From the NCBI GenBank assembly GCA_026390695.1, contig JAPLFL010000128.1, positions 1-64,000 of the forward strand: a stretch of 64,000 bases of DNA, in the 5' to 3' direction. The translations under genes and the position numbers were made by a program. The notes under the pieces were generated by a model. That model was not told the origin of the DNA. It saw only the letters and a program-made list of their open reading frames with translations, and made no database searches. Below are positions 17,922 through 24,042 of this stretch, in pieces. Numbering within the stretch: the stretch's first letter is position 1; every line of letters begins with the position of its first letter. This DNA comes from Candidatus Kapaibacterium sp. GTDB taxonomy: Bacteria; Bacteroidota; Ignavibacteria; Kapaibacteriales; UBA2268.

Positions 17922-17966
17922 TTATTGTTTATAATCAGCTAAATACTTACTAAATATTAATTTGCA
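17922..17966 (+). promoter_or_regulatory. Conserved 45-nt upstream element, copy 1
   Basis: TTATTGTTTATAATCAGCTAAATACTTACTAAATATTAATTTGCA; gap-free alignment to copies 2 and 3, 112 nt before ATG. Confidence 0.75.
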
Positions 17967-18078
17967 ACGATATTTCTTTTTGTTAATTTATATTTTGTGA
18001 ATATGATAAAATGATATTTTTTATTCTTTTTTTTTACAATTGTTGATTTTATAATTAAATTTTTAGGAGATTGATTTT

Positions 18079-19287
18079 ATGAAAACTAGTTTAACTCAAA
18101 AACTTTTATTATTAGCCTTAGCTTTAGGCTTAGGATTTATGATCGCCTGTACAGGCCCTGATGGCCCTCCGGGAAAAGACGGCGTTAATGGTACTAATGG
18201 TACCAACGGTAAGGATGGAACAAATGGCACTAACGGTACTAATGGTAAAGACGGTACTAGTGGTACTAATGGTAAAGACGGATCCCAGGATTGTGAGAAA
18301 TGTCATAATACTGCTAACTCAGATTTCTATAAGAAATGGTATCAGTATGACTTATCATTACATGGAAGAGGAATCGTATTTGAAGAAGAAGCCGGACGTA
18401 CTCAGTGCGGTGGCTGCCATAGTGGTAATGGATTTGCAGAAGCATGTGGATTAAATCAAAATGATGCCGTTACAGAAGCAACCAGTCCAATTAATTGTCG
18501 CGCTTGCCACTTTATTCACACAAATTATGATTCTACTGATTTCAAATTAAGATGGACTAAAGCTGTTACATTGCGTCAACCTGCAACTCCAGTTCAAACA
18601 TTTGATTTCCAAGGTGTCGGAAATACCTGTGCAAAATGCCATCAAGCTCGTACCATATCCCGCACTCAAACTGCAGATGGTAAAGTTGATACACTTGCAA
18701 AAGCAAGCGGAACAACTACCTACAGCCGCGTTGGACCTCATTATGGAATAATTTCTAATATGATGACTGGTATAGGAATTCCTCCAATGGCTGGTGTTAA
18801 TTATGGTACTCCAAATGATAACAGACATAGCTTCTTACCAAAGGGTTGTGTTTCTTGCCATATGGCACAAGATACGACCAATCCTGCAATGGGTGGTCAC
18901 GTGTTCACAATGCCACAGGCAAATTATCAAAACTTTACAACTGCGTACTTCAATGCAACTTGTAATCTTTGCCATCCAAAAGCAACTTTGAAAGCCGCTG
19001 CTAATACTACTTTAATTAAAAATGATATCGCAGCAATCAGAACTAAATTAATCAATGCAAATTTATTAGATACTACACAAGCACTTGCAGTTGAAAACGG
19101 TGTAACAACTTATAAAGTAATTGGTGAATATGTAAAAATTACTCCTAAAAAACTTTGCTTATTAGGAAGCGATACAGTTACAGCACTTATTAACTATCTA
19201 TATGTTGCAAAAGACAGAAGCAATGGCGCTCACAATCCAGCTTTAACAAAAGAAATTGTTAATGGTCTAAAGAATTTCTTTAAATAA
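18079..19287 (+). CDS. Hexaheme c-type cytochrome lipoprotein with long collagen-like tether (paralog 1)
   Basis: Lipobox LGFMIAC; (GXY)14 tract; CEKCH, CGGCH, CRACH, CAKCH, CVSCH, CNLCH. Confidence 0.93.
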   Translation: MKTSLTQKLLLLALALGLGFMIACTGPDGPPGKDGVNGTNGTNGKDGTNGTNGTNGKDGTSGTNGKDGSQDCEKCHNTANSDFYKKWYQYDLSLHGRGIVFEEEAGRTQCGGCHSGNGFAEACGLNQNDAVTEATSPINCRACHFIHTNYDSTDFKLRWTKAVTLRQPATPVQTFDFQGVGNTCAKCHQARTISRTQTADGKVDTLAKASGTTTYSRVGPHYGIISNMMTGIGIPPMAGVNYGTPNDNRHSFLPKGCVSCHMAQDTTNPAMGGHVFTMPQANYQNFTTAYFNATCNLCHPKATLKAAANTTLIKNDIAAIRTKLINANLLDTTQALAVENGVTTYKVIGEYVKITPKKLCLLGSDTVTALINYLYVAKDRSNGAHNPALTKEIVNGLKNFFK

Positions 19288-19309
19288 AATTAAATAACTT
19301 AATTTGAAA

Positions 19310-19345
19310 AGAGCTTCACGATTTTGTTGAAGCTCTTTTTTTTTT
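19310..19345 (+). terminator. Rho-independent terminator after hexaheme paralog 1
   Basis: agagcttcacgattttgttgaagctctttttttttt. Confidence 0.9.
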
Positions 19346-19489
19346 GCACCGATTGTAAACATTGATATACCGCACCCTGACTGACTCAATAAACATATAA
19401 CTAACATTCATTCTTACTTACTTTATATTTTAAGAAAAGTATATATCCTTCTTATATCGTTTCCTACTTGAAGGCTGTCACTCCTGCGT

Positions 19490-19620
19490 ATGCAGGAATC
19501 TCCTGATTGGTACTGGAAGGGGATTCCCGCATGCGCACAAATGACAAGAAAAGGTAATTTTCACACAGTCTCATGCGCACAAGTGACAATAATTCCTAAT
19601 TCATAAAGGAAATGATATTA
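19490..19620. repeat. Second copy of dispersed palindromic repeat
   Basis: tcctgattggtactggaaggggattcccgcatgcg is the exact reverse complement of the repeat near bp 210-244; also ataattcctaattcataaaggaaatgatat resembles the reverse complement of about 1286-1316. Confidence 0.7.
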
Positions 19621-20210
19621 TAAATACAGGGATCAACCTTCTACAGTGGCTTTTGAGGCATAGTGATTCAAATTAAAATATATATTCCTGTAACTTAAAA
19701 TCTCAGGATTTTCTAAAAATGAAATTGAAATTTTTCTAAACAAAACACTGATTTACAATTAGAAATATTTTTATTAGGTACATGGAAAATAATAAAATAT
19801 TTCATAAAAATTAATACTCATTTCAGACTCTAATCTCAAATTACTCATTCTAAATTACTTTTTTAATCTCATATATTATTTCATTACTAATAAAAAAATA
19901 ATTTTGATCCCTCAAATAATGTATTTTTTAGAAGAACTTTTTTATTAACAGTCAAAATCGTGTAAATTTTTGATTGCCAACAAATCTAAGAATTTTTGAA
20001 AAATATTGAGATTAGTTATAATAAATACTCGAAATAAAACAGGATAAATTCCAGATAATTAATTAATTGGATTTACCTAAAAATTCTATCATTAACTAAA
20101 TAATATTTGTTGCTAATAAAAGAAACTATTTTTTATCTATATCAATATTATTTTTGCCATCTATATTCATAATTTAATACTTTCAAATTGAGAAGTAATC
20201 ATCCTCAAAT

Positions 20211-22872: not shown

Positions 22873-22892
22873 TCAAACTAAGGAGAAATAAA

Positions 22893-23378
22893 ATGGAAAA
22901 ATCAGATAGAAGAAAATTTTTAAAGCAAGCCAGTCTTTTGGTTGGTACGGGGATTTGTGTCACATGCGCATCATCATTTCTTAATTCCTGCGAACAAGAT
23001 ATAATCATTCCACCTGTTCCGAAATATACCGGCAAACAGACTATACCGATCAGCGGCGCTCTGGCCAATGATTACGGCTTTTTAGAATATTCATTCTCGT
23101 ATTATCTTGATGGCAAAACTTATAGTAAAACCATCCTGATTGTTAATGAAGGCGGAGGTGTATTTCAGGCATTTGATAATAAATGTCCACATTGGGGTGT
23201 GCCAATTGCTGTACAAGCAAGTTCAAAGGACATCAAATGCTCAGTTCATGCTACTCTGTTTGAATTATCAACCGGAGCTGTAAAGCAAAATGGTTCGGGC
23301 GGAGCACTGAATCCTTTGGGAACCTACACTACTAAGGTTGTTGGAACAAATGTGGAAGTCACGTTTGGAGATAAATAA
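22893..23378 (+). CDS. Rieske [2Fe-2S] protein with Tat signal and lipobox (module A)
   Basis: MEKSDRRKFLKQASLL...SSFLNSC; CPH-x15-CSVH; RBS aaggag; ORF-track start at 22842 is too early. Confidence 0.82.
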   Translation: MEKSDRRKFLKQASLLVGTGICVTCASSFLNSCEQDIIIPPVPKYTGKQTIPISGALANDYGFLEYSFSYYLDGKTYSKTILIVNEGGGVFQAFDNKCPHWGVPIAVQASSKDIKCSVHATLFELSTGAVKQNGSGGALNPLGTYTTKVVGTNVEVTFGDK

Positions 23379-23489
23379 TTTTAATATTTTTCTTAAATAA
23401 ATAGGATAATATAAGTTTGAACGAAATTGTATCATAGCCATTATCATACAATATTTCCAAATTAAAATTATTATTAAAAATCCTCTATT

Positions 23490-23525
23490 CATCCGATGTC
23501 AGTTTAACATCGGATGATTTTTTTT
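23490..23525 (+). terminator. Rho-independent terminator after module A
   Basis: catccgatgtcagtttaacatcggatgatttttttt. Confidence 0.88.
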
Positions 23526-23885
23526 ATACCCTAAAACTGGCTTGTGATGAGGATTTTGATTGACATTGAAAACCCAAATTGAAAAAGGAGTTAAATATAT
23601 TAATCATTTCGGTTAGCCTATATTATCTTCTAAAACTGGCTTGTAATCATGTTAATTCAGCTATTATAAAAATGAAGTTAAAACTGATTACTGAATTTAA
23701 TACAATAAAATTAAATTTATTTTCAATGTAAAATCTAATGTAGTTAATATTCAAAATTTTCCATAAATAAGCGAATTATTTATTTATATTTTACTAAATG
23801 ATTTATTTATGATGAATTTTCATCAAATTAATCATTTACTCATTCTTTAAAACTCTTTTATTTTCAGCTAATTATACTTCTAAAA

Positions 23886-23930
23886 TAATTGTTTAGATAC
23901 GGCTAAACCCTTACAAAGAATTAATTTGCA
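23886..23930 (+). promoter_or_regulatory. Conserved 45-nt upstream element, copy 3
   Basis: TAATTGTTTAGATACGGCTAAACCCTTACAAAGAATTAATTTGCA, 112 nt before ATG. Confidence 0.75.
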
Positions 23931-24042
23931 GTCATTTATATTTTATCTAATTTGGAATTAGTTAATGTAACAAAGCAATAAATTTAATTCTTTTACAATT
24001 TCAATATTTTTTAAACTCAAATTTTTTTTAGGAGATTTTATT

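What the first reader, a model, noticed from the sequence alone, without database searches (positions are those of the whole stretch)
17922..24042. A 45-nt gap-free element precedes all three hexaheme genes at 111-112 nt from the ATG
Seen: TTATTGTTTATAATCAGCTAAATACTTACTAAATATTAATTTGCA (17922-17966), TAATTGTTTAAAATGAGCTAAATACTTACAAACAATTAATTTGCA (20211-20255), TAATTGTTTAGATACGGCTAAACCCTTACAAAGAATTAATTTGCA (23886-23930). Distances to the start codon are 112, 111 and 112 nt. The DNA in between also keeps pieces (GTnAATnTnAtaAA..., TTCTTTTACAATT, AGGAGAT). DNA further upstream does not obviously match. TTAATTTG is one mismatch from the Bacteroidetes -7 box TAnnTTTG. Inference: a shared promoter plus operator followed by a conserved ~100-nt leader, possibly a regulatory RNA.
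Basis: partly seen in the sequence, partly recalled or inferred. Interest (0 to 1): 0.8.

Follow-up and report, generated by a model that had tools for sequence, protein, structure and literature searches.

The report
Shared promoter of three cytochrome genes
Three related multi-heme cytochrome genes in an Ignavibacteria/Kapabacteria-type bacterium each keep the same 45-letter switch region about 110 letters before the gene, most likely a promoter overlapped by a regulator site and followed by a conserved untranslated leader; it matters as a clue to how this poorly studied group controls electron-transfer genes.

Summary
The 45-mer stands ungapped at 17922, 20211 and 23886, 112/111/112 nt before the ATG, and occurs nowhere else in the 4.63 Mb genome. 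Only chance-level matches turn up in relatives. It is not the mark of a recent duplication: four-fold sites of the paralogs differ at about 50%, DNA just upstream is near background, and the element is 73-93% identical. Selection is keeping it.

Its right end, TAATTTGC, behaves as a core-promoter box: TAnnTTTG and TTAATTTGC are enriched on the sense strand upstream of genes in this genome, and the rrn promoter is TTG-N20-TAATTTTG. The -33 TTG is missing; invariant GCTAAA sits there. Best reading: a regulated promoter giving a leader of about 105 nt.

The leader is conserved but unstructured, so a structured riboswitch is not supported. It contains GTTCTTT(TA), the most over-represented word in leaders of orthologous genes across the bacterial family and the core of the clade's rrn boxA. 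A NusB-S10 role is a speculative lead. Regulator and transcription start remain unknown.

The parts
17922..17966 (+). 45-nt element, copy 1 (upstream of cyt1)
   Evidence: exact match, unique in genome
20211..20255 (+). 45-nt element, copy 2 (upstream of cyt2)
23886..23930 (+). 45-nt element, copy 3 (upstream of cyt3)
17958..17965 (+). TAATTTGC, proposed -7 box, copy 1
   Evidence: TTAATTTGC sense-strand enrichment upstream of genes, 11 vs 2; fits TAnnTTGY
20247..20254 (+). TAATTTGC, proposed -7 box, copy 2
23922..23929 (+). TAATTTGC, proposed -7 box, copy 3
17938..17943 (+). invariant GCTAAA at the -33 position, proposed regulator contact, copy 1
   Evidence: invariant in 3 of 3; no TTG at the usual 19-20 nt spacing
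20227..20232 (+). invariant GCTAAA, copy 2
23902..23907 (+). invariant GCTAAA, copy 3
17967..18078 (+). untranslated leader of cyt1 (start inferred) with ribosome-binding site AGGAGAT
   Evidence: conserved beyond shuffles; no significant fold
20256..20366 (+). untranslated leader of cyt2
23931..24042 (+). untranslated leader of cyt3
18022..18043 (+). degenerate form of the leader block (TATTCTTT...TTACAATTG), cyt1
   Evidence: alignment
20311..20327 (+). leader block AGTTCTTTTACAATTTC with boxA-like core GTTCTTT, cyt2
   Evidence: top word in ortholog leaders; rrn boxA core
23986..24002 (+). leader block AATTCTTTTACAATTTC, cyt3 (lacks the G)
18079..19287 (+). cyt1: hexaheme lipoprotein-type c-cytochrome with collagen-like linker
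20367..21524 (+). cyt2: paralogous multiheme cytochrome
24043..25218 (+). cyt3: paralogous multiheme cytochrome
19311..19335 (+). terminator GAGCTTC...GAAGCTC after cyt1
   Evidence: this stem occurs only after the three cyt genes in a 955-kb sample
21546..21571 (+). same-type terminator after cyt2
25240..25267 (+). same-type terminator after cyt3
21613..22872 (+). barrel-like protein with one CXXCH, partner gene of cyt2 (no Pfam match; barrel nature inferred)
   Evidence: conserved downstream of most orthologs
22893..23378 (+). Rieske [2Fe-2S] protein, partner gene of cyt2
   Evidence: PF00355
25308..26555 (+). barrel-like protein with one CXXCH, partner gene of cyt3

Best explanation
The 45-mer is a promoter region kept by selection in front of three old paralogs. 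TAATTTGC at its right end acts as the -7 box of the Bacteroidota/Ignavibacteria type of promoter. Transcription starts a few bases downstream and gives an mRNA with an unusually long leader of about 105 nt, ended by a shared terminator after each cytochrome gene. The standard -33 TTG is absent; invariant GCTAAA-N2-CTTAC, with ATTGTTTA just upstream, occupies that place. A dedicated regulator (activator or repressor) or a special sigma factor probably reads it, so that the three cytochromes are expressed together under one signal. Shown: position, uniqueness, selection, box enrichment, lack of RNA fold. Inferred: transcription start, regulator, signal.
For: Element conserved (34 of 45 columns) while four-fold sites are about 50% different and the DNA upstream is near background. 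TAnnTTTG 148 sense vs 89 antisense (p = 0.0001) and TTAATTTGC 11 vs 2 (p = 0.011, cyt copies left out) upstream of genes, concentrated 25-100 nt before starts. T and G enriched at -22 and -20 from the box, i.e. a TTG at 19-nt spacing; own rrn promoter TTG-N20-TAATTTTG. TAATTTGC fits TAnnTTGY (SM5) of F. psychrophilum. Second cytochrome copies of a related genus score best with the element's PWM, CTAAATA-N11-TTAATTTTGA, 116-129 nt before the ATG. Only these three genes carry it.
Against: No transcription start is mapped. The box is one base short of, or one mismatch from, TAnnTTTG. TAnnTTGY as a class is not enriched (111 vs 94, p = 0.13). The leader is longer than the usual distance of such boxes from starts. 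The PWM hits in relatives are marginal after correction for 34 upstream regions. No regulator or regulator gene is identified; the CRP helix-turn-helix model PF00325 finds nothing in the genome.
Confidence: 0.65

Rival explanations
1. The main control is in the leader: GTTCTTT(TA) is a boxA-like NusB-S10 site that recruits the Nus complex to the nascent mRNA and changes termination or translation; the 45-mer is only the promoter.
For: GTTCTTT, AGTTCTTT and GTTCTTTTA are the top 7-, 8- and 9-mers in ortholog leaders over 20 genus-level groups, 0 on the other strand. The same 7-nt core forms the clade's rrn boxA, GTTCTTTGAAAA. Spacing to the promoter box varies, as expected of an RNA signal. BoxA control of mRNAs is known (GYTCTTTAANA, PMC5725501).
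Against: Only 7 of 20 groups carry the core. In this genome only cyt2 is exact; cyt3 has A for G and cyt1 is degenerate. Position 8 is T, not A or G. Genera whose rrn boxA reads GTTCATT (g19, g14) do not show GTTCATT in these leaders. In this clade the rrn word also pairs with the 16S trailer, so its conservation need not mean NusB binding.
Confidence: 0.15
2. The similarity is left over from duplication or gene conversion and has no present function.
For: The three genes are paralogs, and the promoter, leader, signal-peptide codons and terminator are all similar.
Against: Four-fold sites differ at 40-54% even in the first 34 codons, so neither recent duplication nor conversion explains a 73-93% identical element with an abrupt upstream edge.
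Confidence: 0.06
3. The leader is a structured regulatory RNA (riboswitch or thermometer).
For: Leader conserved. RNAalifold pairs TCTTTTA with the ribosome-binding site TAGGAGA.
Against: Folds are no better than shuffles (z -0.26, 0.69, 0.80); consensus energy -2.6 kcal/mol with several broken pairs; no Rfam family at gathering score; leader-to-SD duplexes have mean z about 0 over 37 leaders.
Confidence: 0.05
4. The element is an alternative (ECF-type) sigma promoter with GCTAAA as its -35 box, not a regulator site on a primary-sigma promoter.
For: Invariant sequence at the -33 position; no TTG there; TAnnTTGY is a non-primary motif in F. psychrophilum.
Against: TAATTTGC occurs upstream of many unrelated genes without GCTAAA, whereas a sigma regulon would repeat both boxes; the core has no second site.
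Confidence: 0.12

Closest known systems
Bacteroidetes primary-sigma promoter (-33 TTG/TTTG, -7 TAnnTTTG)
   Same: Box type, position upstream of a leader; the type is enriched in this genome and seen at its rrn operon.
   Different: No -33 TTG; box is TAATTTGC; the leader is long.
SM5 promoter motif TAnnTTGY of Flavobacterium psychrophilum (PMC9723704)
   Same: TAATTTGC matches it letter for letter.
   Different: Other class and other genes; its sigma factor is unknown; the class is not enriched here as a whole.
boxA (NusB-S10 site), rrn leaders and suhB mRNA (PMC5725501)
   Same: Leader position and GTTCTTT core, the same core as in this clade's rrn leaders.
   Different: Position 8 is T; cyt3 and cyt1 deviate further; no boxB/boxC context tested.

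Membership tests
Bacteroidetes primary-sigma promoter | -7 box TAnnTTTG | tested here: not met
   TTAATTTG (one mismatch) or TAATTTG (one base short) in all three; the close variant TTAATTTGC is enriched upstream of genes
Bacteroidetes primary-sigma promoter | -33 TTG/TTTG about 19-21 nt upstream of the -7 box | tested here: not met
   CAG/GAG/CGG at that spacing
Bacteroidetes primary-sigma promoter | transcription starts a few nt downstream of the box | not testable with these tools
   needs 5'-end mapping
SM5 (TAnnTTGY) promoter | TAnnTTGY at -12 to -5 | tested here: met
   sequence TAATTTGC in 3 of 3; position relative to the start not testable
SM5 (TAnnTTGY) promoter | motif class active in this genome | tested here: inconclusive
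   TAnnTTGY 111 vs 94, p = 0.13; TAnnTTGC 55 vs 36, p = 0.03
boxA (NusB-S10 site) | GYTCTTTAANA, or the clade's own rrn form GTTCTTTGAAAA | tested here: inconclusive
   cyt2 GTTCTTTTACA, one mismatch; cyt3 two; cyt1 more
boxA (NusB-S10 site) | binding by NusB-S10 | not testable with these tools
   needs a binding assay
Structured cis-regulatory RNA | fold more stable than shuffles, with covariation | tested here: not met
   only 3 sequences, so power is low
Rfam families | match above gathering score | tested here: not met
   three sub-threshold hits, none overlapping the element or leaders
CRP/FNR-regulated promoter | CRP-family HTH protein in the genome | tested here: inconclusive
   PF00325 finds none in the genome; other CRP-like HTH models not tried

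The most novel reading that the evidence does not exclude
A family-wide leader signal, AGTTCTTTTA, in mRNAs of the multiheme cytochrome module is a boxA-like site by which the Nus machinery, normally devoted to rRNA, controls extracellular-type electron-transfer genes; in this lineage a dedicated promoter element placed it under common control in three paralogs.
Probability: 0.12. Interest if true: 0.65.

Novelty: new member of a known kind. Interest (0 to 1): 0.4.

Why it matters
Cis-control of multiheme cytochromes in the Ignavibacteria/Kapabacteria branch does not appear in the papers I searched (an open-access library only). The finding gives three natural replicates of one promoter region with selection demonstrated, evidence for the promoter type of the lineage, and a leader word shared across genera that can be tested directly. 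If the leader word is a NusB-S10 site, it would extend boxA control of mRNAs to respiratory genes in another phylum.

Tried and rejected
Recent duplication or gene conversion. A genome-wide regulon of the 45-mer or its 27-nt core, or its presence in relatives (hits at about control rate). A second promoter at TAAATTTA in the leader: that word shows no strand bias, 38 vs 38. Structured leader RNA. Sequestration of the ribosome-binding site by TTCTTTTA (mean z about 0). Co-variation of the leader word with the rrn boxA variant GTTCATT (of the GTTCATT matches only L026 resembles the leader block, and its rrn form is unknown). Association of the leader word with a downstream barrel gene: nearly all loci have the barrel, so uninformative. 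Naming the regulator from the motif: a CRP-like dyad GTTTAG-N6-CTAAAC is perfect only in copy 3, and PF00325 finds nothing. Genome-contig scan gave one distant locus; plasmid search gave none.

Full report
What was checked. Thirty-four of 45 columns are invariant; shuffled triples give 10.8 +/- 2.6 with a maximum of 17. In the whole 4.63-Mb genome the pattern with up to 3 mismatches, and its 27-nt core with up to 3 mismatches, occur only at these three places. A profile scan of a 955-kb sample (64-kb window included) finds no further convincing site: the next sites score about 15 against 57-60, and the best of these is the element's own reverse strand, which shows its partial palindromy. The core has no counterpart above control rate in 396 other genomes of the class, nor the full pattern in 60 relatives.

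Why it is not just an old copy. cyt2 and cyt3 are 50% and 49% identical to cyt1, and cyt2 and cyt3 are 75% identical to each other. At four-fold degenerate sites the gene pairs differ at about half of the positions, also within the first 34 codons, so neutral positions are near saturation. Ungapped identity of the element is 73-93% per 15-nt block and falls towards background (0.34 expected) immediately upstream, with some residual likeness between cyt1 and cyt2 for about 30 nt. Purifying selection on the element is therefore the natural conclusion.

What the element is. I took about 0.96 Mb of the genome and collected 398 upstream regions. Leaving out the three cyt genes, TAnnTTTG occurs 148 times on the sense strand and 89 times on the antisense strand (p = 0.0001), mostly 25-100 nt before the start codon, with T and G enriched at -22 and -20, that is, a TTG at 19-nt spacing. 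The rRNA operon of this genome has TTG-N20-TAATTTTG. So the Bacteroidetes-type promoter is in use here. The element ends in TTAATTTGC, which is itself enriched (11 sense vs 2 antisense, p = 0.011). It reads exactly as TAnnTTGY, the SM5 promoter motif that was mapped and mutated in Flavobacterium psychrophilum (PMC9723704); the TAnnTTGY class as a whole is not significantly enriched here. At the place of the -33 TTG the three copies have CAG, GAG and CGG, the last G being the first base of invariant GCTAAA, followed by CTTAC. A weak dyad, ATTAATTGTT/AACAATTAAT, spans the element (P = 0.016), best in copy 2. The simplest model is a promoter with a poor -33 box overlapped by a regulator site. Whether the regulator activates or represses, and what it senses, is not known.

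Independent support from relatives is modest. Orthologs occur in 35 of 55 genomes of the bacterial family, the own genome included. Scanning 34 ortholog upstream regions with the element profile, the two best are the second cytochrome copies of one genus (L030, L031), with CTAAATA-N11-TTAATTTTGA at the same internal spacing and 116-129 nt before the ATG (per-region p 0.001 and 0.01 with the full profile). After correction for 34 regions this is marginal.

The leader. The ~95 nt between element and ribosome-binding site hold 48 invariant columns against 27 +/- 4 in shuffles; note that the 110 nt upstream of the element are also somewhat above shuffles in gapped alignment (43 against 29.5 +/- 5). 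The leaders do not fold better than shuffles, alifold gives -2.6 kcal/mol, and Rfam has no match at gathering score (one search listed only sub-threshold matches). A structured RNA switch is thus not supported, with the caveat that three sequences give little power.

An unexpected lead. An unbiased word count over ortholog leaders in 20 genus-level groups puts GTTCTTT, AGTTCTTT and GTTCTTTTA first among 7-, 8- and 9-mers (nominal p 3e-5, 5e-7, 8e-8; about 0.02-0.03 for the 8- and 9-mers after correction for all possible words), with none on the opposite strand. cyt2 carries it as AGTTCTTTTACAATTTC; cyt3 has A for G; cyt1 is degenerate. The word GTTCTTT is also the core of the boxA in the rRNA leaders of this genome and its relatives, GTTCTTTGAAAAYAGGRAGT, and fits GYTCTTTAANA, the gamma-proteobacterial boxA that also controls some mRNAs (PMC5725501), with one mismatch in cyt2. 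Against a boxA reading: the eighth base is T, only 7 of 20 groups have the core, genera with the rrn variant GTTCATT do not carry it in these leaders, and the rrn word is also half of a leader-trailer helix. I treat it as a lead (0.12-0.15). Pairing of this word with the ribosome-binding site was tested and not supported.

Transcription units. Each cytochrome gene is followed by a terminator with the same stem, GAGCTTC/GAAGCTC, which in the sample occurs nowhere else. cyt2 and cyt3 are followed about 40 nt after the terminator by a barrel-like single-heme protein and then a Rieske protein. The barrel-like gene lies next to the cytochrome gene in 28 of 34 ortholog loci. The partner genes thus probably depend on read-through of the terminator (inference).

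Verdict. New member of a known kind, of moderate interest.

Noticed in passing
window 19311-19335, 21546-21571, 25240-25267: All three cytochrome genes end in a terminator with the same stem GAGCTTC/GAAGCTC, found nowhere else in a 955-kb sample; it stands between cytochrome and partner genes in the cyt2 and cyt3 units.
   Followed up: partly
window 20367-23378 and 24043-27057; L008-L046: A module of multiheme lipoprotein cytochrome + single-CXXCH barrel-like protein (no Pfam match) + Rieske protein is duplicated here; cytochrome + barrel is conserved in 28 of 34 ortholog loci of the bacterial family.
   Followed up: partly
L113 and relatives' rrn leaders; G000:C119:59059-59078 and 60592-60611: In this clade the rrn boxA word GTTCTTTGAAAATAGGGAGT also pairs with a trailer downstream of 16S; in genus g19 the variant GTTCATT changes on both sides.
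   Followed up: partly
window 19480-19560 and about 296: Dispersed repeat containing GTATGCAGGAATC (22 copies in the 955-kb sample) lies between cyt1 and cyt2.
   Followed up: no
window 44175-45134 and 45535-46494 (-): Two tandem flagellin genes, 276 of 320 aligned positions identical.
   Followed up: no
window 23532 and 23631: Direct repeat TAAAACTGGCTTGT about 100 nt apart in the intergenic region upstream of cyt3, only two copies in the sample.
   Followed up: no
window 18160-18290: cyt1 has an expanded collagen-like linker (PF01391) that is short in cyt2 and cyt3.
   Followed up: no
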